Assembly (NCBI GenBank): GCA_945931735.1
Contig: CAMEPN010000016.1
Location: 1-13,476, forward strand
DNA from: an uncultured Clostridia bacterium
GTDB lineage: Bacteria; Bacillota; Clostridia; Oscillospirales; Ruminococcaceae
Reading direction: 5' to 3'
Length of the DNA: 13,476 bases
Made by a program: the position numbers and the translations under genes. The notes under the pieces are model-generated. The model worked only from the letters and a program-made list of their open reading frames with translations, searched no databases and was not told where the DNA came from. Of the stretch, positions 2,658-13,476 are shown one piece after another (within the stretch, counting starts at the first letter, position 1; each line of letters begins with the position of its first letter).

Positions 2658-4643
2658 TCAAATATCAAGATTTACCGCAAGCTTTGCGTTTGCTTCGATA
2701 AATTCGCGCCTCGGCTCAACCTTATCTCCCATGAGAATAGTCATGATCTCGTCTGCCTTAGCCGCGTCCTCGACGGAAACGCGGAGCATCGTGCGTGTTT
2801 CGGGATTCATTGTTGTTTCCCAAAGCTGCTCGGGATCCATCTCACCAAGACCTTTGTATCGCTGAACATCGGTCTTTCCGCCGTCTGCGCCTAGCTCTGC
2901 TATAAACTCATCGCGCTCCTCGTCGGAGAAAGCGTATCTTACCTGCTTTCCTCGCGAAACCTTAAACAGCGGAGGCTGTGCGATATACACATGACCCTGC
3001 TCCAGCAGCGGCCTCATAAAGCGGAAGAAGAACGTCAGCATGAGCGTTCTGATATGCATACCGTCGACATCGGCATCTGCCATGATGACAACTCGCCCAT
3101 AGCGGAGCTTTGTTATATCGAAATCCTCTGCAATTCCCGTTCCGAGCGCCTTTACAACCGGCGACAGCTTATCGTTATTGTAAACCTTGTCCGCGCGCGC
3201 CTTTTCTACGTTGAGCATTTTGCCCCACAGCGAAAGGATAGCCTGAAAGCGCCTGTCGCGGCCGCTCTTTGCGGAGCCGCCCGCAGAATCTCCCTCGACG
3301 ATATAAATTTCCGTCTTGGACGGGTCGCTTTCGGAGCAGTCGGCAAGCTTTCCGGGCAGACCGTTGCTGTCCATTATAGACTTGCGCTTTGCCTCCATTG
3401 CTTTCTTTGCCGCGTCGCGCGCCGCCTGGGAATTTATCGCCTTGTTCATGATTATCTGAGCAGTTTCGGGGTGTTCCTCGAAATAATAGGTGAGCTGCTC
3501 GACGGCGATTTTATATACAACGGGCTGAACCTCGGGGTTGCCGAGCTTTCCCTTTGTCTGACCCTCAAATTCGCACTCGGGGAGCTTTACGGAGATTATC
3601 GCGTTGATTGCCTCGCGTATAGCCTCGGGGCTGAAGCCGGTAAACGGCTTTTCTTCCTCGCCCTTCTTTGCGGACTTTTTCTTGACCTTATTTTTCTCGT
3701 TATTTTCCTTATAAGCCTTGGCGTAGTCGTTTATTACCTTGCTGAGCGCCTTTTTGAAGCCTATCTCATGCATACCGCCCTCGCCGGTGTGGATATTGTT
3801 CGCAAAGGAACGGAAAATCTCGCTGTTGAAGTCGGTGGTATACTGGAATGCGATTTCGACGTTGATATCGTTCAGCGTTCCGCTGAGATAAATTATATCG
3901 GGGTGGAGCACCTCTGCCCCGCGCTTTTTGTTGAGCCATTCGATATAGCTGCAAATTCCGCCCTCATACTGCATTACCTCGTTTACGGGGTTTTCCGCGT
4001 CGCGCAGGTCGTGCAGGTTTATTTTCAGACCCGCGTTGAGGAACGCCTGCTCGCGCAGCCTTTCCTGTAACGTTTCGTAGCTGAATACAGTGGTATGGAA
4101 TATCTCTCCGTCGGGCTTGAATGTTACCTGTGTTCCGGTATGGTCGGTCTGACCGATTATCTTGATAGGCTCCTTGTATTCGCCGCGGTCGAAGTGCTGG
4201 AAGTGGACGTTCTTACCGTCGTGTATCTCCACCTCAAGCCACTCGGACAGCGCATTTACGACGGAAGCGCCGACGCCGTGCAGACCGCCGGACACCTTAT
4301 ATCCTCCGCCGCCGAACTTACCGCCCGCATGGAGCACGGTAAACACGAGCGTAGCCGCAGATATCCCCTCGGAATGATTTATAGCGGTAGGCACGCCGCG
4401 CCCGTTATCTATTACGCGGATAACGTTGTCCGGCAGGATAGACACGTCTATCTCGGTGCAGTAGCCCGCCAGAGCCTCGTCTATCGCGTTATCGACTATC
4501 TCGTAAACGAGGTGATGCAGACCGCCCTCGCCCGTCGAGCCGATATACATACCGGGGCGCTTTCTTACAGGGTCAAGTCCCTTGAGCACCTGTATGTCGT
4601 CGGCGCCGTAATTCGCGTCCAATGCCTTTTCGTTTTCAGCCAT
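2658..4643 (-). CDS. gyrB: DNA gyrase subunit B
   Basis: This is the ATPase and TOPRIM subunit of gyrase, 661 residues from ATG 4643. That start is preferred over the upstream in-frame ATG at 4682 because GGAGGA sits 5-6 bases before it and the protein then begins MAENEKALDANYGADDIQVLKGL, as the family does. GHKL ATPase motifs: EIVDNA 48-53 (catalytic Glu48, Asn52), DNGRG 79-83, GGLHGVGASVVN 119-130. The transducer has GQTK 361-364, whose Lys contacts ATP. TOPRIM has Glu450 in VEGDSAGG and the metal-binding DADVD at 523-527. Residues about 313-333 form a lysine- and glutamate-rich stretch that looks longer than usual in the transducer. The QRDR reads ILSLWGKMLNVEKAR, where Pro would be expected instead of Ser471. 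First gene of the gyrase operon. Confidence 0.97.
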   Translation of the reverse strand: MAENEKALDANYGADDIQVLKGLDPVRKRPGMYIGSTGEGGLHHLVYEIVDNAIDEALAGYCTEIDVSILPDNVIRVIDNGRGVPTAINHSEGISAATLVFTVLHAGGKFGGGGYKVSGGLHGVGASVVNALSEWLEVEIHDGKNVHFQHFDRGEYKEPIKIIGQTDHTGTQVTFKPDGEIFHTTVFSYETLQERLREQAFLNAGLKINLHDLRDAENPVNEVMQYEGGICSYIEWLNKKRGAEVLHPDIIYLSGTLNDINVEIAFQYTTDFNSEIFRSFANNIHTGEGGMHEIGFKKALSKVINDYAKAYKENNEKNKVKKKSAKKGEEEKPFTGFSPEAIREAINAIISVKLPECEFEGQTKGKLGNPEVQPVVYKIAVEQLTYYFEEHPETAQIIMNKAINSQAARDAAKKAMEAKRKSIMDSNGLPGKLADCSESDPSKTEIYIVEGDSAGGSAKSGRDRRFQAILSLWGKMLNVEKARADKVYNNDKLSPVVKALGTGIAEDFDITKLRYGRVVIMADADVDGMHIRTLMLTFFFRFMRPLLEQGHVYIAQPPLFKVSRGKQVRYAFSDEERDEFIAELGADGGKTDVQRYKGLGEMDPEQLWETTMNPETRTMLRVSVEDAAKADEIMTILMGDKVEPRREFIEANAKLAVNLDI

Positions 4644-4693
4644 ATTTATCCTCCGTTGAGCAGTAAATCTTAAATGAACCATATATTATATAT

Positions 4694-4722
4694 AGTATAC
4701 CACAAAATCGCGATAATTTCAA
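4694..4722 (-). promoter_or_regulatory. Sigma-A promoter of the gyrB operon
   Basis: On the minus strand TTGAAA (4717-4722) is followed after exactly 17 bases by TATACT (4694-4699), and TG lies one base before the -10, making an extended -10 box. Transcription would start near 4687, about 44 bases before the gyrB ATG. It lies directly downstream of the remB terminator, so gyrase can be expressed independently of the dnaN-recF group. Supercoiling control of gyrase promoters is known in other bacteria, but nothing here proves it. Confidence 0.8.
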
Positions 4723-4801
4723 GTGTTTTATCCATTTGAGGGCTAAATATCCTCGGAAAAGCATTGTTTTTTTAGACAAAAAACACCGCACAAATATGTA
4801 C

Positions 4802-4837
4802 AAAAAAACCGCCGCAAATCATCGCGCGGCGGCGGTT
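4802..4837 (-). terminator. Rho-independent terminator after remB
   Basis: A perfect 9-bp GC-rich stem, AACCGCCGC (4829-4837 read on the minus strand) with GCGGCGGTT (4807-4815), encloses a 13-base loop and runs into a T tract (4802-4808 on the minus strand). It starts two bases after the remB stop codon. It should end the dnaN-yaaA-recF-remB transcript before gyrB. Confidence 0.88.
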
Positions 4838-4838
4838 A

Positions 4839-5093
4839 TCACATGATGTCGTTTTTCGCCCTTTTGTTTATCGTATCGTTTGAAACATTGGATATATAAA
4901 CGCTGTCGGAGCAGACTATAAAGCTTTTCGGCATATCCTCGGACACGTTCCGCACCAGCCCGCTTTTCTGGCATTTGTTCAGATAATCGGCGGTTATTCG
5001 GCTGACGGAGCATTCCTCAATGTCAAATATCCCTATGACATCGCAGCTCCTCACCGACACATCTCCCCCGAGGAAAAGATAAACATTTTTCAT
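4839..5093 (-). CDS. remB: RemB-like (DUF370) regulator
   Basis: A small 84-residue protein of the RemA/RemB DUF370 family. In Bacillus subtilis, RemA and RemB promote extracellular matrix (biofilm) gene expression, RemA as a DNA-binding protein; the role here is inferred from family and position. Recognisable features are the N-terminal YLFLGGDVSV strand, DVIGIFDIE, and KSFIVCSDSVYISNVSNDTINKRA, which correspond to the B. subtilis YaaB pattern IHLGDD...IVGIFD...KSIVV...YYSPLSSSTLKKRA. I chose ATG 5093 over the longer in-frame ATG at 5141 because it matches the family N-terminus and lies just after the recF stop (5095-5097), with an AGAGG site inside the end of recF. The recF-remB order is the conserved Firmicute arrangement. 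A strong terminator follows. Confidence 0.85.
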   Translation of the reverse strand: MKNVYLFLGGDVSVRSCDVIGIFDIEECSVSRITADYLNKCQKSGLVRNVSEDMPKSFIVCSDSVYISNVSNDTINKRAKNDIM

Positions 5094-5094
5094 A

Positions 5095-6222
5095 TCAGAC
5101 CTCTGTAAAGCATCCGTTTTCCGTCCGCCATGTCTTTCCATTTTTCAGCGCGGACAGGTCTTCAATATTACAACAAGTAATAAACACCTGAGATTTTTCA
5201 ATATTGTTTACAACATATCCCCTGCGGACAAAATCCAGCTCGCTCAGAATATCGTCCAGAATGACCACAGGACAGGTCTTGTTTCTTCGGCGTATAATTT
5301 CCGCTTCGGACAGCTTAAGGGCCAATGCGGCGCTTCTGAGCTGCCCCTGCGACGCAAACTCTCTCGCCGCCATTCCGTTGATAAAGAAATTCACGTCGTC
5401 GCGGTGAACTCCCGCAGTCGTATATCTGAGCTTCATCTCCGTTTCGAGATTTTTTGACAGCTCGTCGATATATTTATTATACAATTCGTTTACATTATCA
5501 AAATTAATACTGTCCGTCTTGAAAATTGAACTGTAATATTCCATTTCAAGCTTTTCCGCGCCGTCGGTAAGCTCTGAATAAATCCCCGAAGCATATTCCT
5601 TAAGGAACGCGAAATATTTGAGCCTGCCGTAGGTGACGTTTATCCCCTCGCTCGCGAGAACTCCGTCCCAGACGGAAAGCTGCGCGGCGAGCGCCTGCGG
5701 GTCTGTTGTATTGTTAAACGCGAGGATATTGTTACGCTGCTTTAGCCCCTTGTTATAACGCGCGAGCTTTTTCAGGTGAGTTTTCGTCTGCATGACCGCA
5801 ACGTCGTCGAGGTAATTCCGACGAAGCTCGGGCGCGCCCTTTATCAAATTAAGGTGTTCCGGTATAAAAACAACATATTTTAACACTCCGTATAATTCCG
5901 CAGCGTCTTTCATTTTCAGCCCGTTATATTTTACAGTAAGAACACCTTTACTTATAGTATAATCTATAATATTTTCACGCTCGGTATTATCATCTTTGAA
6001 ATAAAGCTGTATCACGACGTCGGCGCCGGGGTCGTCTGCGGGGATATACTGAGAAAAACGCACATGGCGGAAGCTGCCGCCAAGACAGACGGAAACAGCC
6101 TCCATGAGATTAGTCTTGCCCTGTGCGTTTTTTCCCACGAAGATATTCAGATTTTTGTCGAAATTCAGCTCCGCCTCTTTTATGTTGCGGAAGCCTCGTA
6201 TATACATTTTTGTGATATACAT
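5095..6222 (-). CDS. recF: DNA replication and repair protein RecF
   Basis: An SMC-like ABC ATPase that helps load RecA at single-stranded gaps with RecO and RecR. It is 375 residues, the usual length. Walker A is GKNAQGKT at 30-37. Other family blocks are MEAVSVC just after it and GVHRDD at 271-276. The ABC signature is SQGQLRS at 291-297, and Walker B VVILDDILSELD lies at 319-330. The ATG at 6222 directly follows the last base of the S4-protein stop codon (6223), so the two are probably translationally coupled. The N-terminus MYITKMYIRGFRNIKEAEL fits the family and supports this start over the internal Met6. Its place between the S4 gene and remB is typical of Firmicutes. Confidence 0.97.
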   Translation of the reverse strand: MYITKMYIRGFRNIKEAELNFDKNLNIFVGKNAQGKTNLMEAVSVCLGGSFRHVRFSQYIPADDPGADVVIQLYFKDDNTERENIIDYTISKGVLTVKYNGLKMKDAAELYGVLKYVVFIPEHLNLIKGAPELRRNYLDDVAVMQTKTHLKKLARYNKGLKQRNNILAFNNTTDPQALAAQLSVWDGVLASEGINVTYGRLKYFAFLKEYASGIYSELTDGAEKLEMEYYSSIFKTDSINFDNVNELYNKYIDELSKNLETEMKLRYTTAGVHRDDVNFFINGMAAREFASQGQLRSAALALKLSEAEIIRRRNKTCPVVILDDILSELDFVRRGYVVNNIEKSQVFITCCNIEDLSALKNGKTWRTENGCFTEV

Positions 6223-6471
6223 TTATTCGGGCTTGCTTTCTTCCTCGACAACGGCGTTCTCGTCGAGAGCGACCTTGTATTTCTTTCCCTTGAACTCAAT
6301 AACGTCGCCGGGCTTTATCTTCTTTCCTCTTTTTGTGCAGCATTCTCCGTTGACGTTGAACTCGCCGAGATCAATGAGTATGCGCGCTCTGGCTCCCGTT
6401 TCGGCAAGCCCCGCGAACTTCACGAGCTGGTCAAGCTTAATAAAAGGTGTGACTATTTTTATTTCTTCCAT
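6223..6471 (-). CDS. yaaA: S4-domain RNA-binding protein YaaA
   Basis: An 82-residue protein carrying an S4-type RNA-binding fold: IKLDQLVKFAGLAETGARARILIDLG is the helix-turn motif, and NVNGECCTKRGKKIKPGDVIEF the basic beta hairpin. The acidic tail (residues about 70-82, EENAVVEEESKPE-like) looks disordered. Proteins of this type sit between dnaN and recF in most Firmicutes; a link to ribosomal RNA or 50S assembly has been proposed for the family, but I see nothing here that fixes the target. The start at 6471 has an AAGGAAGG ribosome site 6-7 bases upstream. The stop codon abuts the recF start. In the sense used here YaaA is the B. subtilis dnaN-recF intergenic gene, not the E. coli peroxide-stress gene of the same name. 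Confidence 0.9.
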   Translation of the reverse strand: MEEIKIVTPFIKLDQLVKFAGLAETGARARILIDLGEFNVNGECCTKRGKKIKPGDVIEFKGKKYKVALDENAVVEEESKPE

Positions 6472-6514
6472 TTGTAACCTTCCTTGAGTAACTTATATTA
6501 TTTTATGTATTAAA

Positions 6515-7615
6515 TTATTTCAATCTCATCGGGAGCAGCAGGAACGTAAACTCTCTGCCCTCCATGGGGACAATTATTATCGGCGAAACAGAGGACTGCG
6601 TCATCTCCATTTTTACCATATCGGTATCCGCCGCCTTGAACGCGTCCATAAGGTATTTTGCGTTAAATCCTATAACGATAGGGTCGCCGTTGTATTTTAT
6701 CGCTATCTTGTCGCTTACCTTTCCGAGCGCGGTGGTGCAGCTCATGGAGAGGCTGTCGTCCGCAAATTCGCAGCGCACGGGGCACTTGTTCTTCTCGTTT
6801 ATTATCAGCATACAGCGGTCGAGCATTTCGATGACCTCGCGGCAGTTTACCTCCGCGCATATAGGTCTTTCTCCCTCGAGATGCTTTTTATAGGAAATAA
6901 ATTCTCCGTCGATAAGGCGGGAGATCATGGTATAGCTTCCGACCTCGAAGGATATCTGATTTTTATCTATACAGAGAGTAACTTCCTTATCACTTTCATC
7001 TGAGAGTATATGAGTTAATTCCTCAAGCGACTTCAGCGGAACTATAAATTCTATATTATCATAAACAACAGGCTCCTGCCTGAGCGCTATTCTAATTCCG
7101 TCGACCGCGACAACGTTGAGCATATTGTTATCTATCTCAAACTTGCAGCCCATGAGCGCGGGCTTGGAATCGTTGAGAGAGCAGGCGTATTTTGTCTGAT
7201 TTATCATGCTCTTAATCAGCTTCTGCGACATTGTGAAGCTGGTTTCGGGGTTTACTGAGGGAACGGTCGGATAATCCTCCGCGTTCATGCACATTACGGA
7301 AACCTCTGTGTCCCTGTTTACTATTACCGCCATATTCGAGGGGTCGCAGGAGAAGGTTATCTCGCCCGAGGGCATTTTTCTTATGATATCGCCCGCGATT
7401 TTCGCATTGACGATCGTGCTGCCGTCCTCCGCGCCGCTTACGGGTATTTCGGTTCTTATTCCTATATCAAGATCGTAGCCCGTGATCGTGAGCAGATCTC
7501 CTTCGAGCCGGAGCAGAACTCCCTCCAGCGCCGAGATCGTGCTTTTTGAAGCCGCAGCCTTTGATGTCGTAAGGACTGCGTTGAGCAGTATATCCTTTGG
7601 GCAGCTGAATTTCAT
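6515..7615 (-). CDS. dnaN: DNA polymerase III beta subunit (sliding clamp)
   Basis: The ring-forming processivity clamp that tethers the replicative polymerase and recruits clamp-binding proteins. It is 366 residues, the standard length. The start MKFSCPKDILLNAVLTTSKAAASK and the internal ISALEGVLLRLEGDLLTITGYDLDIGI block are diagnostic. The middle domain carries SLNDSKPALMGCKFEID and NVVAVDGIRIALR, and the C-terminus ends FTFLLLPMRLK, the conserved clamp terminus next to the peptide-binding pocket. AAAGGAG lies 8 bases upstream of the ATG. It leads the dnaN-yaaA-recF-remB unit and is separated from dnaA by the 364-base putative unwinding region. I found no convincing sigma-A promoter of its own, so partial read-through from dnaA is possible. 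Confidence 0.97.
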   Translation of the reverse strand: MKFSCPKDILLNAVLTTSKAAASKSTISALEGVLLRLEGDLLTITGYDLDIGIRTEIPVSGAEDGSTIVNAKIAGDIIRKMPSGEITFSCDPSNMAVIVNRDTEVSVMCMNAEDYPTVPSVNPETSFTMSQKLIKSMINQTKYACSLNDSKPALMGCKFEIDNNMLNVVAVDGIRIALRQEPVVYDNIEFIVPLKSLEELTHILSDESDKEVTLCIDKNQISFEVGSYTMISRLIDGEFISYKKHLEGERPICAEVNCREVIEMLDRCMLIINEKNKCPVRCEFADDSLSMSCTTALGKVSDKIAIKYNGDPIVIGFNAKYLMDAFKAADTDMVKMEMTQSSVSPIIIVPMEGREFTFLLLPMRLK

Positions 7616-7689
7616 TATAAAAACTCCTTTCTAAAACAAAACGAAATTTTTCCGAAGGAAAAATCAAACCAAAAAATAAGATTTAAATT

Positions 7690-7711
7690 TAATAATAATA
7701 ATAATAAAGGC
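7690..7711 (+). promoter_or_regulatory. Putative DnaA-trio element with GC spacer
   Basis: Six perfect TAA trinucleotides (7690-7707) are followed by one A and then GGC. Read 3' to 5' on the plus strand away from the boxes at 7712-7862, this gives repeated 3'-AAT-5', which fits the published DnaA-trio consensus 3'-(G/A)A(T/A)-5'. The strand and direction fit DnaA loading from the box cluster onto one strand towards dnaN. An ordinary AT microsatellite would look similar, so position and orientation carry the argument. Confidence 0.55.
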
Positions 7712-7862
7712 AGTTGAAACTGTGGATTTTCAGAAAAACGGCTTGTACATTGATTTCAAAGCGAATATTTTTTCAACACCGAATGTTGACAACAAAGTAA
7801 AATGTGAAAAAAACTCCGATTTTTCAACGTTATGTTGAAAACCAATAAAAAGATGTTGATAA
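7712..7862. repeat. DnaA-box-like cluster, dnaA-dnaN side
   Basis: Nine-mers related to TTTTCAACA and TTATCCACA: GTTTCAACT (minus, 7712-7720), AAATCCACA (minus, 7721-7729), TTTTCAACA (plus, 7770-7778), TTGTCAACA (minus, 7784-7792), TTTTCAACG (plus, 7821-7829), TTTTCAACA (minus, 7833-7841) and TTATCAACA (minus, 7854-7862). The last differs from the canonical TTATCCACA by one base. The first two directly adjoin the GC spacer and trio. Assignment to DnaA is inferred from position and resemblance. Confidence 0.65.
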
Positions 7863-7897
7863 TTCGGGCAGAAAACGCCGTTTTTTGCCGCAGCCTC

Positions 7898-7955
7898 CCC
7901 AAAAATAAAGGCAATCATTTAGGAGCAAGAATTATCCCTTTCCTAAAGCAATTGC
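7898..7955 (-). terminator. Possible weak terminator after dnaA
   Basis: An imperfect hairpin starts about 24 bases after the dnaA stop. Arms GCAAT and TTTAGGA (minus strand, 7941-7955 with an internal TGC) pair with TCCTAAA and ATTGC (7911-7924), enclosing a 16-base loop. The minus strand then reads CTTTATTTTT. The stem is AT-rich and broken by a small internal loop, so it may only attenuate transcription into dnaN. The plus-strand side is also T-rich. Confidence 0.35.
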
Positions 7956-7979
7956 TTTTATTTTATGATTGACGCTGTA

Positions 7980-9338
7980 TCACTGATTAGCCTTGATATT
8001 CTTAATAATATCCTCGACAACGGAGCGGAAGCTGCTGTCCTTTTCCATTTCTTCCTTTACGGATTTAATGGCATAAACCACGGTGGAATGATCTCTGCCG
8101 TTGAACTCGTTGCCTATCGCCTCATAGGGAAGCCCGGTGACGTCCTGTATAACATATATAGCCACCTTGCGCGCCTGCGAGATGTTTGCTGTGCGGCGCT
8201 GCGAGCGCATATCCTCGGGTTCGATGTTGTATATCTTGCCGACTTCGCTGATTATCTTGTCGACGGTGACGGGTATCGGCTGATGATCCGTCACGATATC
8301 CTTGATAACGTTCTGCGCAACAGCTATCGTGGGCTTTACCTGAGAAACCATGTAAAGCGCGTTGAGCTTTGTAACGACGCCCTCTATCTGACGAATATTC
8401 GATTTGAGCTTTGTCGCTATGTAGTCGATAACGTCCTCGCTTATATTAAAGTGGAGAAGCTCCGCCTTGCGCTGTATTATCGCGAGGCGCGTTTCATACT
8501 CCGGAGGCTTCACGTCGGCGATAAGTCCGCTGCTGAACCTTGTGCGGAGTCTGTCGGATATCGACTTTATCTCCTTCGCGGGTCTATCCGACGTCAGAAC
8601 GATAACCTTATTCTGATTATAAAGCTCGTTAAAGATATGGAAGAATTTCTCCTCCGTCTGCTCCTTGCCAGCGATGAACTGGATATCGTCTATCAGCAGG
8701 GCGTCGGCGCTCCTGTACTTTTCGTCGAACACCTCGACGTTGTTCGCAGATATCGAATGCAGAAACTCGTTCGTAAATGTTTCCGCAGGTATATATATAA
8801 TGTTGATGCCGGGGTAGTTCTTCTGCATTTCGTGCTGAATAGCGGAAAGCAGGTGGGTCTTTCCCAGACCGGAATCACCATATATAAAGAGGGGGTTATA
8901 TTTCTCGTGCTGCTTCTGTGAAACTGCCTTTGCGGCGGCGAAAGCAAGGTTATTTGACGGGCCGACGATAAAGTTGTCGAAGGTATAGGTTATCTTCCTG
9001 TCAATAATATCCATTTCCTTGTTGACAGGCTCTGCGTTTATAATTTCGGAGATAGGCTGCTTTGGCGAGCCTATTTCGCTGTCGACAACGATCTCCACCT
9101 TCATCGGCACCCCGAGGATCACCTTGAACTGTTCTTCTATGTACGGGAGATAAAGGTTATTGAGCGTTTCTCTTTTAAATTCGACATTTGTTGCGAGGGT
9201 TATTTTATTTCCCTCCATTTTTACCGGCTCAAGCGGGTCGAGCCACAGCTCGCGCGCGGGGCCGGAGATATCATACACCTTTACGCAGTTATCCACCACG
9301 CATTTGTAGATGTCGGCAAGAGAAGACAAAGAGTTCAT
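7980..9338 (-). CDS. dnaA: Chromosomal replication initiator DnaA
   Basis: The AAA+ initiator that binds oriC and opens the duplex. It is 452 residues from ATG 9338. I prefer this to the in-frame ATG at 9350 because GGTGA, complementary to the 16S tail, lies 5 bases before it and the length then matches the family. Domain I is about residues 1-85 and the linker 86-112. Domain III has Walker A GDSGLGKT at 154-161, Walker B LLIDD at 214-218, sensor I LTSDRP at 248-253, the RLRTRF arginine-finger region at 263-268 and sensor II RQIEG at 316-320. Domain IV carries the DNA-binding signature GRDHSTVVYA at 414-423, canonical in spite of the unusual box sequences nearby. It lies between two box clusters, which suggests autoregulation. 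It transcribes towards the putative unwinding region, as in B. subtilis. Confidence 0.97.
   Translation of the reverse strand: MNSLSSLADIYKCVVDNCVKVYDISGPARELWLDPLEPVKMEGNKITLATNVEFKRETLNNLYLPYIEEQFKVILGVPMKVEIVVDSEIGSPKQPISEIINAEPVNKEMDIIDRKITYTFDNFIVGPSNNLAFAAAKAVSQKQHEKYNPLFIYGDSGLGKTHLLSAIQHEMQKNYPGINIIYIPAETFTNEFLHSISANNVEVFDEKYRSADALLIDDIQFIAGKEQTEEKFFHIFNELYNQNKVIVLTSDRPAKEIKSISDRLRTRFSSGLIADVKPPEYETRLAIIQRKAELLHFNISEDVIDYIATKLKSNIRQIEGVVTKLNALYMVSQVKPTIAVAQNVIKDIVTDHQPIPVTVDKIISEVGKIYNIEPEDMRSQRRTANISQARKVAIYVIQDVTGLPYEAIGNEFNGRDHSTVVYAIKSVKEEMEKDSSFRSVVEDIIKNIKANQ
9289..9297 (+). promoter_or_regulatory. Near-canonical DnaA box inside dnaA
   Basis: TTATCCACC is one base from the consensus TTATCCACA and lies within the first codons of dnaA (the Val-Val-Asp-Asn stretch). 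It may belong to the dnaA promoter/origin cluster, but the codons alone could explain it. Confidence 0.3.
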
Positions 9339-9404
9339 TTTTTTCACCATTCCATATATATTCCGTTATTCCGTAATTATCGGCGGACAATGACCCGATA
9401 AAAT

Positions 9405-9605: not shown

Positions 9606-9911
9606 TTAAACAAACTGATATGCCGCAAGGCATACTGCTGCGCTTATCAGAGCGCCTGCCGCAGCTCCTGCGACTATTTTTATACGCTGTGTTATTTTTG
9701 CGGCATTTATAAATGACGGCGGCTGTCCGTTAAGGCTGAGCGCCATTTCTCTCCTTAAAGTTTCCTCGTCGGGAATTGGGCAGTCGGATCTCAGCACAAC
9801 GATCGCCCTTTCAAAATATTTGCTGTCCATATTGTTTATTTCTATTATGTTTCTTGTAACTCCTCTTATCACTTTTCTGTTTTCCTTTCTGCTTATCTTT
9901 TTCAACTTCAT
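9606..9911 (-). CDS. Small single-helix membrane protein of unknown function
   Basis: A 101-residue protein I cannot name. The first 20 residues are very basic (MKLKKISRKENRKVIRGVTR). The middle is a mixed segment, NIIEINNMDSKYFERAIVVLRSDCPIPDEETLRREM. Residues about 78-101 form one Ala/Val-rich hydrophobic helix that ends at the stop, giving a tail-anchored topology with a cytosolic N-terminus. The VTR..IEI.....YFERAI.V.R pattern recalls small conserved proteins of Oscillospiraceae that databases loosely label hypothetical or initiation factor; that is memory only. ATG 9911 lacks a clear ribosome site. GTG 9872 (Val14), with AAAGGA upstream, is an alternative start. A TATAAT lies just upstream. 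It sits alone upstream of dnaA, inside the origin region, where rpmH often lies. Confidence 0.7.
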   Translation of the reverse strand: MKLKKISRKENRKVIRGVTRNIIEINNMDSKYFERAIVVLRSDCPIPDEETLRREMALSLNGQPPSFINAAKITQRIKIVAGAAAGALISAAVCLAAYQFV

Positions 9912-10622: not shown

Positions 10623-11603
10623 ATGAAAGCAACAAAGGTAATTTCCATACTTACGGCGGCAATGATGCTGACCGCATTTGCGGGCTGCTCCAACGGAACA
10701 ACATCCGAATACGGCAGCTCCGACAGCTCCGCTTCTTCCGCGGACAATTCCTCTAAGGAAAGCAAATCCGACAGCTCCGCTGCGGCTGATAACTCCTCTG
10801 AGGAAACCAAGGCTACTCTGACCGACGACATCACCGTTATCTCCCGCGAGGAAGGCTCCGGAACAAGAGGCGCGTTCGTCGAGCTTATGGGCATCCAGCA
10901 GGAGAACGACAAGGGTGAAAAAGAGGACATGACGACCGAGAACGCCGAGATAACCTCCTCCACCTCCGTAGTGCTCCAGTCCGTTGCGGACAACAAGGAC
11001 GCGATCGGTTACATCTCCCTCGGTTCTCTGAATGACACCGTAAAGGCGATAAAGGTAGACGGCGTTGAGCCTTCTGTTGAGGACATACTTAACGGAAGCT
11101 ATGCAGTAGCTCGTCCCTTCGTTGTATGCTATAAGGAAGGCGAGCTGAGCGAGCTTGCCGCAGACTTCATGACCTTTATCATGAGCGAGCAGGGACAGGC
11201 GATAATCACCGACAACGGCTACATCTCCGAAGGTAACGACGGCGCTTATACAGGCTCGGGAATGTCCGGCAGCCTGACGCTTTCCGGCTCCACCAGCGTA
11301 TCCCCCGTAATGGAGAAGATCGCCGACGCATATAAGGAGATCAACCCCGACACCGTTATTGAAGTTCAGCAGACAGGTTCCAGCGCAGGCATTACCGCTG
11401 CTACCGAGGGCGCTTGCGACCTGGGTATGAGCTCCAGAGCGCTCAAGGACACCGAGCTTGAAAAGGGTCTTACCGCAAAGACCATCGCAAACGACGGCAT
11501 CGCAGTCATCGTAAACCACGAGAACCCCGTTGACGACCTCACCTCCGAGCAGATCATGAAGATCTACACCGGCGAGATAACCAACTGGGCAGATCTCGGC
11601 TGA
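10623..11603 (+). CDS. pstS: Phosphate-binding lipoprotein PstS, circularly permuted
   Basis: The extracellular phosphate receptor of the Pst importer, 326 residues. A signal peptide ends in a lipobox (FAGC, Cys22), followed by a Ser/Asp/Lys-rich tether to about residue 64. The mature order is unusual. Residues 68-202 match the C-terminal half of ordinary PstS: REEGSGTR 75-82 (phosphate loop), AIGYISLGSLNDTVKAIKVDG, ARPF 163-166, FIMSEQGQAI and GYIS. After a GSGMSG linker, residues 216-326 match the N-terminal half: SGSTSVSPVMEKIADAYKE from 221, TGSSAG 251-256, GMSSRALKD from 268, DGIAVIVN 291-298 and TGEITNWADLG to the stop. Both halves carry their ligand motifs, so the protein looks functional rather than truncated. 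AAGGAG lies 10 bases before the ATG. A Pho-type promoter precedes it; pstC follows after a hairpin. Confidence 0.93.
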   Translation: MKATKVISILTAAMMLTAFAGCSNGTTSEYGSSDSSASSADNSSKESKSDSSAAADNSSEETKATLTDDITVISREEGSGTRGAFVELMGIQQENDKGEKEDMTTENAEITSSTSVVLQSVADNKDAIGYISLGSLNDTVKAIKVDGVEPSVEDILNGSYAVARPFVVCYKEGELSELAADFMTFIMSEQGQAIITDNGYISEGNDGAYTGSGMSGSLTLSGSTSVSPVMEKIADAYKEINPDTVIEVQQTGSSAGITAATEGACDLGMSSRALKDTELEKGLTAKTIANDGIAVIVNHENPVDDLTSEQIMKIYTGEITNWADLG

Positions 11604-11691: not shown

Positions 11692-11724
11692 CAGGTATAC
11701 GAATGTTAAATTAAGGTGGTCCGA

Positions 11725-12615
11725 ATGACAGCGACAACAACAAAAGCAAAGCCGCAGATGACAAAGCAGCGCTTCACCGACATATTCATGCGCGTGATAT
11801 TCACGCTGTGCGCTTGTGTTTCCATCCTCGCGGTGGTATTTATCTGCATATACATATTCGCGGGCGGATTTCCCGCGATAAGGGAGATCGGCATATTCGA
11901 CTTTCTTTTCGGAATGAAGTGGAAGCCCTCGAGCGGGTATTTCGGGATATTCCCGATGATCGTCGGGAGTATAGTCGTTACGGGTATCGCAATAATCGTC
12001 GGAGTTCCGATAGGTATACTCTGCTCGGTTTTCATGGCGTATTACTGCCCCGCATGGCTCTACCGCTTCATAAAGCCCGCCGTTAATCTGCTGGCGGGAA
12101 TACCCTCTATCGTTTACGGCTATTTCGGTCTTATGGCTATGGTGCCCGCGATGAAGGATATTTTCGGCGGCTCGGGAAAAAGTATGCTGACGGCGGGGAT
12201 ACTGCTGGGGATAATGATACTCCCGACGATAATCGGCGTATCGGAAACCTCGCTCCGCGCCGTTCCTAAGTCCTATTACGAAGGCTCGCTCGCGCTGGGC
12301 GCAACGCATGAGCGCAGCGTATTCTTCGCGTCGCTGCCCGCGGCGAAGTCGGGAATACTCGCCGGAGTGATACTCGGCGTCGGGCGCGCTATCGGCGAAA
12401 CTATGGCAGTAGCAATGATCGCGGGAAACCAGGCAAGGCTCCCGGAAAGCATAACCGACGGAATAAGAACGCTGACCTCTAACATAGTTATCGAGATGGG
12501 CTACGCGGCAGAGGGAATACACCGCGATTCGCTTATAGCGACCGCCGCTGTGCTGTTCGTGTTCATACTTATAATAAACCTCTGCTTCTCCGTTCTTAAG
12601 CGCAGAAAGGACTGA
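11725..12615 (+). CDS. pstC: Phosphate ABC transporter permease PstC
   Basis: One of the two membrane subunits of the Pst phosphate importer, 296 residues. I chose ATG 11725 over an in-frame GTG at 11716 because AAGGTGG (11713-11719) is a good ribosome site for the ATG and would overlap the GTG. Six hydrophobic segments lie at about 24-46, 75-97, 118-140, 154-174, 212-232 and 268-290. The cytoplasmic coupling loop that contacts the ATPase (EAA loop) is at about 174-207: ETSLRAVPKSYYEGSLALGAT. AGIPSIVYGYFGL and GRAIGETMAVAMIAGN are typical PstC blocks, the latter distinguishing it from PstA. It ends four bases before pstA, so the two are co-translated. Confidence 0.95.
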   Translation: MTATTTKAKPQMTKQRFTDIFMRVIFTLCACVSILAVVFICIYIFAGGFPAIREIGIFDFLFGMKWKPSSGYFGIFPMIVGSIVVTGIAIIVGVPIGILCSVFMAYYCPAWLYRFIKPAVNLLAGIPSIVYGYFGLMAMVPAMKDIFGGSGKSMLTAGILLGIMILPTIIGVSETSLRAVPKSYYEGSLALGATHERSVFFASLPAAKSGILAGVILGVGRAIGETMAVAMIAGNQARLPESITDGIRTLTSNIVIEMGYAAEGIHRDSLIATAAVLFVFILIINLCFSVLKRRKD

Positions 12616-12619
12616 CATC

Positions 12620-13476
12620 ATGACGAACGAAACTGCCGCAAAGGCTGTTATATCTGAGCCTGCTCCCGAAAAATACATTAACAAGGTGACCTTGAAGCAG
12701 AAGCTGCTCAGATACAGGCGCAGCCCGCTTTCCCTTGTACTTATGATACTTGTCATGCTCTCGGCGCTGTTCGCTGTTGGTATACTGCTTTACCTTATCG
12801 GGTTCATTCTTATTAAGGGCATACCCGCGCTCTCGTGGGAGCAGTTTGAATGGAAATACACCGCCGAAAACGTATCCATGATACCCGCGATAATCAACAC
12901 GGTTATAATGGTAGTGCTGACGCTGGTGCTCGCCGTTCCTATCGGAATTTTCTCGGCGATATACCTTGTCGAATACGCAAAGCGCGGGAGCAAGCTCGTT
13001 AAGCTTGTCAGAATAACCACCGAAACGCTTTCGGGCATTCCGTCGATAGTATACGGTCTGTTCGGATTTCTGATGTTCGTTATCGGCTTCGGTTGGGGCT
13101 ATTCGCTTATATCCGGCGTTATCACGCTTGCGATAATGGTGCTTCCGACTGTAATAAGAACGACCGAGGAGGCGCTGCTCGCCGTGCCCGACAGCTACCG
13201 CGAGGGCAGCTTCGGCTTGGGCGCGTCGAAAACCAGAACTGTTTTTAAGGTAATTCTCCCCTCGGCTATCCCCGGAATAATGTCGGGCGTGGTGCTTTCG
13301 ATAGGAAGAATAGTCGGAGAGAGCGCGGCGCTTATCTTCACTGCCGGAACCTATGCCGCCATACCCAACGCGGACAATTTCCTGTTCTCCTCGACGAGAA
13401 CGCTCGCGGTGCATATGTATGCGCTGTACAGCGAGCGTCTTTATACGCGGCAGGCGAATGCGACGGAGGTTATTCT
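12620..13476 (+). CDS. pstA: Phosphate ABC transporter permease PstA, 3' end cut
   Basis: The partner permease to PstC; 285 codons are present and the frame is open to the right edge, close to the usual full length of about 290-310. AAAGGA lies 8 bases upstream of the ATG. A polar N-terminal tail of about 35 residues precedes the first membrane helix at 38-66. Further helices lie at about 90-116, 138-157, 163-180 and 215-240. The EAA coupling loop is at about 181-215: TTEEALLAVPDSYREGSFGLGASKTRT. ETLSGIPSIVYGLFGF and IGRIVGESAALIFTAG are typical PstA motifs. pstB, and perhaps phoU, would be expected next outside the window. Confidence 0.95.
   Translation, partial: MTNETAAKAVISEPAPEKYINKVTLKQKLLRYRRSPLSLVLMILVMLSALFAVGILLYLIGFILIKGIPALSWEQFEWKYTAENVSMIPAIINTVIMVVLTLVLAVPIGIFSAIYLVEYAKRGSKLVKLVRITTETLSGIPSIVYGLFGFLMFVIGFGWGYSLISGVITLAIMVLPTVIRTTEEALLAVPDSYREGSFGLGASKTRTVFKVILPSAIPGIMSGVVLSIGRIVGESAALIFTAGTYAAIPNADNFLFSSTRTLAVHMYALYSERLYTRQANATEVI

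What the first reader, a model, noticed from the sequence alone, without database searches (positions are those of the whole stretch)
10623..11603. Circularly permuted PstS phosphate-binding lipoprotein
In ordinary PstS the order is SGSTS...GSSAG...GMSSR...DGIAVIVN...ITNW, then SREEGSGTR...AIGYISLG...ARPF...GQAI...GYI. Here the second block comes first (residues 68-202) and the first block second (216-326), joined by a short GSGMSG-type linker. The protein stops at TNWADLG, exactly where the normal chain would run on into the GSGTR segment. All ligand motifs are kept once, so this is a permutation rather than a duplication or truncation. The lipid tether is thereby moved to the GSGTR side of the fold, which could change how the receptor docks on PstC/PstA. 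I recall similarly ordered PstS in other Clostridia, but know of no dedicated description.
Basis: partly seen in the sequence, partly recalled or inferred. Interest (0 to 1): 0.75.

Follow-up and report, generated by a model that had tools for sequence, protein, structure and literature searches.

The report
Circularly permuted phosphate-binding lipoprotein (PstS)
This gene encodes a phosphate-uptake receptor whose two halves are in swapped order, a rearrangement that seems to have happened once and is carried, together with its own lineage of partner permease, by many Clostridia and some unrelated bacteria; a public crystal structure already shows the same order.

The parts
10623..11603 (+). 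pstS, circularly permuted phosphate-binding lipoprotein, 326 aa
   Evidence: ORF; families; collinear with 4h1x
10623..10688 (+). lipoprotein signal peptide ending in lipobox Cys22 (residues 1-22)
   Evidence: sequence; Cys22 invariant in 25 aligned homologues
10689..10823 (+). low-complexity Ser/Ala/Asp/Glu tether, residues 23-67
   Evidence: pLDDT below 50 for residues 9-62
10824..11231 (+). block B (canonical C-terminal half: SREEGSGTR, IGY, RPF), residues 68-203
10902..10937 (+). approximate extent of the loop with conserved D102-x-T104 that is specific to the permuted clade
   Evidence: BA-specific columns; GSGTR-IGY spacing 44 vs 34
11232..11261 (+). short linker joining the old C and N termini, residues 204-213
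   Evidence: lies between the block B and block A definitions used for the HMMs
11262..11600 (+). block A (canonical N-terminal half: SGSTSV, GSSAG, GMSSR, ITNW), residues 214-326
11716..12615 (+). pstC, permease of the clade that accompanies permuted pstS
   Evidence: TIGR02138 283 bits (cut-off 196); trees
12620..13474 (+). pstA-like permease, runs off the contig end
   Evidence: PF00528 79 bits; open ORF; second permease hit

Best explanation
The gene encodes a working PstS phosphate receptor that is a natural circular permutant. The old N and C termini are joined by about 10 residues, and new termini open between the ITNW end of block A and the VISREEGSGT start of block B. The lipid tether therefore attaches on the GSGTR side (inferred to be lobe 2) instead of the usual N-terminal lobe, while the phosphate cleft keeps its main motifs. 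It hands phosphate to the PstC/PstA encoded just downstream. Shown: order, fold match, operon, single clade, co-inherited PstC clade. Inferred: phosphate binding by this protein, lobe assignment, origin by tandem duplication followed by loss of the first A and the last B.
Against: No binding or transport was measured for this protein. The model is moderate (mean pLDDT 75.1, pTM 0.63; two of five models below 50). In the quick PstS trees the split has only 80-94 support. One chosen outgroup row, L150, did not fall with the other two, so the rooting rests on two rows. The SSR motif (S271, R272) is invariant in 25 permuted homologues but did not reach the shared threshold with canonical rows. The hybrids P0032 (ABA), P0110 (BAB) and P0136 (BABA) are each listed from one contig and could be assembly chimeras or later recombinants rather than ancestral steps.
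Confidence: 0.93

Rival explanations
1. The order is an assembly artefact or a damaged, truncated tandem PstS in this metagenome-assembled genome.
For: The genome is fragmented: 377 contigs, about 70% complete.
Against: Near-identical full-length proteins are listed from other contigs (P0002-P0006, 97-100% identity). The same order is seen in 80 of 80 named loci kept, in complete plasmid records and in a crystal structure.
Confidence: 0.01
2. The permutation arose more than once, by separate local duplications in different Clostridia.
For: Tandem and hybrid architectures (BABA, ABA, BAB) show that the locus may rearrange.
Against: One split in every PstS tree built, whole-domain and block trees; a shared loop of about 10 residues; a single PstC clade.
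Confidence: 0.05
3. The permuted receptor has left phosphate and binds another ligand (for example phosphonate, molybdate or another anion).
For: RefSeq names two relatives only 'substrate-binding domain-containing protein', and no ligand was measured here.
Against: Two cleft motifs are conserved across both orders; operon with pstC, pstA, pstB and phoU; the Pst2 system of pneumococcus transports phosphate; no canonical PstS over cut-off in 31 of 31 permuted genomes of the family sample.
Confidence: 0.03

Closest known systems
Streptococcus pneumoniae PstS2 (SP_2084), PDB 4H1X
   Same: Same B-A order, collinear over the whole domain, 46% identity in the structural alignment; groups inside the permuted clade
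   Different: Different class (Bacilli, by recall), and its species also has a separate PstS1 (4EXL) that matches as two stretches. The text term '4H1X' gave 0 papers.
Canonical Clostridium PstS, PDB 4GD5 and 4Q8R
   Same: Same two blocks, same GSGT and GSS.G motifs
   Different: A-B order. Canonical PstS as a group have a shorter GSGTR-IGY spacing and other PstC lineages; these two proteins were not in those sets
Tp0684 / TpMglB-2 of Treponema pallidum ('Type Ic' or 'Cluster Bc', PMC4990184)
   Same: Circularly permuted, lipid-tethered substrate-binding protein; its authors report the topology also in Gram-positive gut bacteria and suggest a link with tethering (passages)
   Different: Glucose/galactose family of the Type I fold; different cut site; an unrelated event
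Glycine-betaine-binding proteins OpuAC (2B4L) and ProX, with molybdate-binding proteins and CysB (CPSARST paper, PMC2395249)
   Different: Remote in sequence (14% identity) and ligand

Membership tests
PstS phosphate-binding protein (TIGR02136 / PF12849) | Both halves of the PstS domain present | tested here: met
   Two stretches each; TIGR02136 206.8 bits vs cut-off 206.6, PF12849 132.8 vs 27
PstS phosphate-binding protein (TIGR02136 / PF12849) | Canonical A-B order of the halves | tested here: not met
   B-A order; this is the usual family layout, so the claim is 'permuted PstS', not 'canonical PstS'
PstS phosphate-binding protein (TIGR02136 / PF12849) | Conserved cleft motifs GSGT and GSS.G | tested here: met
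   S79, G80, T81, S253, G256 shared by 39 permuted and 42 canonical rows; their role as phosphate contacts is recalled from E. coli PBP
PstS phosphate-binding protein (TIGR02136 / PF12849) | Conserved SSR motif | tested here: inconclusive
   S271 and R272 invariant in 25 permuted homologues, but not over the shared threshold in canonical rows
PstS phosphate-binding protein (TIGR02136 / PF12849) | Encoded in a pst operon | tested here: met
   pstC and pstA-like downstream in the window; pstB and phoU not in the window but present in relatives
PstS phosphate-binding protein (TIGR02136 / PF12849) | Binds inorganic phosphate | not testable with these tools
   Needs purified protein
Permuted PstS clade (4H1X type) | Collinear with 4H1X and inside the same clade | tested here: met
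Permuted PstS clade (4H1X type) | Extra D-x-T loop in block B | tested here: met
   GSGTR-IGY spacing 39-44 in 112 permuted vs 34-39 in 37 canonical ORFs that hold both motifs; D102/T104
Permuted PstS clade (4H1X type) | PstC of the matching clade next door | tested here: met
Type Ic permuted sugar-binding proteins (TpMglB-2) | Member of the glucose/galactose Type I family | tested here: not met
   No sugar-binding Type I family among the six Pfam matches at E up to 1; best fold match is PstS

The most novel reading that the evidence does not exclude
One ancient permutation founded a self-contained phosphate importer subfamily: the receptor's tether moved to the other lobe, and receptor and permease have since been locked together, so that permuted PstS works well only with its own PstC/PstA lineage. 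This would explain why no mixed receptor-permease pairing was found among the 72 operons and why whole operons, not single genes, appear to have crossed into Actinomycetota and Spirochaetota.
Probability: 0.3. Interest if true: 0.65.

Novelty: new variant of a known kind. Interest (0 to 1): 0.5.

Why it matters
PstS is a textbook receptor, and about a quarter of the genomes sampled in the window's family (31 of 119) carry a topologically rearranged version with no canonical one over cut-off. Because its halves match family models separately, annotation can miss it: two RefSeq relatives inside complete pst operons are called only 'substrate-binding domain-containing protein'. Since both orders occur in one protein family with solved structures, it is a natural experiment on whether the attachment side of a membrane tether matters for delivery to an ABC importer. 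With the published permuted MglB-2 (PMC4990184) it suggests that tethered binding proteins of treponemes and Gram-positive gut bacteria have been permuted at least twice.

Tried and rejected
Tether compensation: I expected a longer arm in permuted proteins. Cys-to-domain length does not differ among loci (93 permuted, median 19; 35 canonical, median 22; p = 0.79). With all proteins, near-copies included, the medians are 25.5 (300 permuted) and 15.5 (60 canonical); a lipobox was not found in 12 permuted and 1 canonical. I lean on the less redundant loci, but the result depends on sampling.

Hybrid proteins as fossils: P0032 (A-B-A) looked like the expected intermediate. Its first A block is 99% identical to a canonical protein (P0142) and the rest 99-100% to a permuted one (P0121), so it is better read as a recent recombinant or chimera.

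Mixed tandem arrays (canonical and permuted next to each other) were looked for as a source of hybrids: 0 of 206 loci, a set with overlapping duplicates.

Phage carriage: phage-collection hits with the permuted order (H31-H35) are unannotated fecal 'Bacteriophage sp.' records, probably bacterial DNA; not followed up.

The family count was read by eye from a match list that the tool truncated at weak matches. Three further genomes (G116, G149, G178) show only one block or blocks on different contigs and were not counted as permuted; G178 also has a canonical match over cut-off, so if its lone A block belongs to a permuted gene it would hold both. G066, G158 and G160 carry, beside the permuted gene, a weaker match in canonical order below the cut-off. 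Outside the family both forms coexist in some genomes (G030; G268, canonical match just below cut-off). The class sample (196 genomes) was not counted because its match list was cut.

Rows dropped: 4 of 23 canonical loci are not in the PstC tree (L150, L156, L159 no hit; L160 short) and the permuted rows were thinned to 31 by similarity. In one search, 8 of 80 loci with a two-block PstS had no PstC hit in range (L150, L151, L156, L159, L160, L161, L178, L186), and L211 was left out because only block A was recognised. L088, L089, L092, L102 (A only) and L145 (B only) were left out of the earlier PstS tree; 368 rows were thinned to 80. In one search the spacing could be read in 112 of 125 permuted and 37 of 84 canonical ORFs, the rest lacking one of the two motifs as written.

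Full report
What is there. ORF 10623-11603 (+) encodes 326 aa with a lipoprotein signal ending at Cys22, a low-complexity tether, then block B (residues 68-203), a linker of about 10 residues and block A (214-326), stopping at ITNWADLG. It is followed by pstC (11716-12615; TIGR02138) and a pstA-like ORF that runs off the contig (12620-13474). The window's genome, about 70% complete in 377 contigs, shows no other PBP_like_2 protein.

How common is it? Of the 120 listed homologues (of 7,996 scored), 118 have the B-A order. Of 239 proteins from two searches, block HMMs give 209 BA, 25 AB, one each of ABA, BAB and BABA, and 2 BA proteins with a split B match. In genome samples drawn without regard to order, the permuted signature appears in 3 of 61 genomes of the phylum, the window's own included (G000, G023, G030; G060 unclear), and in 31 of 119 of the window's family, again with its own (counted by eye). 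In the family, 45 genomes have a canonical match over the cut-off and none has both (Fisher p = 3.5e-8); G178, canonical over cut-off, also has a lone A block. Incomplete genomes and a truncated list of weak matches limit this. Permuted operons also occur in Adlercreutzia and Parvibacter (Actinomycetota, L045 and L069), an Acidaminococcaceae MAG (L053), and on the Treponema saccharophilum replicon pTS2 (Spirochaetota).

One origin. With blocks trimmed and joined in one order, a careful tree of 39 permuted and 42 canonical proteins puts all permuted ones on one side of a branch (100/95; 100% of 200 bootstrap trees; 27.2 changes on average for shuffled labels). Rooted on Ilyobacter and Bacteroides PstS, the permuted clade is nested inside canonical ones, so canonical order is ancestral; the third chosen outgroup, Salinivibrio L150, fell inside the ingroup on a long branch. 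Block-A and block-B trees each show the single split (80 and 94), as does an 80-row quick tree (93). A marker unrelated to order agrees: GSGTR-to-IGY spacing is 39-44 residues (median 44) in 112 of 125 permuted ORFs and 34-39 (median 34) in 37 of 84 canonical ORFs, the rest lacking a motif as written; the set holds overlapping loci. The difference is a loop whose D102 column is D in all 39 permuted rows and a gap in 38 of 42 canonical rows.

Receptor and permease go together. PstC from 36 permuted and 36 canonical operons splits into two groups by receptor order with support 100 (quick tree). Of the 36 permuted rows, 18 come from 20 loci that I picked from the order-blind genome samples, 15 from the named scan, 2 from plasmid records and one is the window. 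The Actinomycetota and Treponema rows lie inside the permuted clade. A smaller tree, 31 vs 19, gave 99. Both orders occur in the same taxonomic families (f1, f2), so this is inheritance or transfer of whole operons. Whether the pairing is also a mechanical need is open; tether length gives no consistent support.

How it probably works. The GSGTR and GSSAG motifs are conserved across both orders, and GMSSR among permuted proteins; from recalled knowledge of E. coli PBP these are phosphate-contacting stretches, so cleft chemistry should be largely unchanged. The new termini lie in what I infer to be lobe 2, so the lipid arm leaves the opposite lobe from that of canonical PstS. Experimental support comes from pneumococcus: Pst1 or Pst2 suffices for phosphate uptake at 1 mM, and one of the two is required in encapsulated strains (PMC4913102, passages read; that its PstS2 is the 4H1X protein I take from the name). 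That paper's text has no match to 'permut'.

How it arose. Permutation by duplication (AB-AB, loss of the outer A and B) is the standard route and is inferred here. Tandem permuted genes exist (L013, L025, L037), tandem canonical genes exist (L149), and a single-ORF BABA protein is listed (P0136). The ABA and BAB proteins are better explained as recombinants between the two forms.

What is known. Ten paper searches over the open full-text library (in one search only 15 of 29 papers were listed) brought up no description of a permuted PstS. I saw listings only, except passages in PMC4990184, PMC2395249, PMC9732360, PMC4913102 and PMC12421899. Subscription journals are mostly not held. Natural permutation of binding proteins is known: TpMglB-2 (PMC4990184) and relations among glycine-betaine and molybdate binding proteins and CysB (PMC2395249). 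The 4H1X structure was released in 2012, so the topology is public even if no account of it was found.

Verdict. The gene is an ordinary member of a permuted PstS clade; the clade as a whole is a new variant of a known kind.

Noticed in passing
window 2658-9350: Minus-strand ORFs that look like gyrB (2658-4682), recF (5095-6222), an S4-like protein (6223-6471), dnaN (6515-7615) and dnaA (7980-9350), names by recall: the pst operon sits beside the presumed replication origin. DnaA-box-like TTATNCACA with up to one mismatch: 15 in the window vs 8.9 expected, 3 of 200 shuffles as many.
   Followed up: partly
window 9606-9911 (-): 101 aa ORF between dnaA and pstS with no Pfam match at E 0.001.
   Followed up: no
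P0032, P0110, P0136 (proteins): Hybrid or tandem PstS proteins with A-B-A, B-A-B and B-A-B-A architecture; the first two join canonical-type and permuted-type blocks, pointing to recombination between the two forms, or to assembly chimeras.
   Followed up: partly
phage collection H31-H35 (MT838544.1, MT837962.1, MT837530.1, MT838145.1, MT837061.1): Permuted pstS-like matches on short unannotated fecal 'Bacteriophage sp.' records, probably bacterial contigs deposited as phage.
   Followed up: no
L013, L025, L037: Two permuted pstS genes on one strand upstream of pstC; in L037 they lie nearly 4 kb apart and one copy is very divergent.
   Followed up: no
G156:C13: Five PstS-like matches in canonical order in long open frames (862-1627 aa) along about 16 kb of one contig: large proteins with a binding domain, function not examined.
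   Followed up: no
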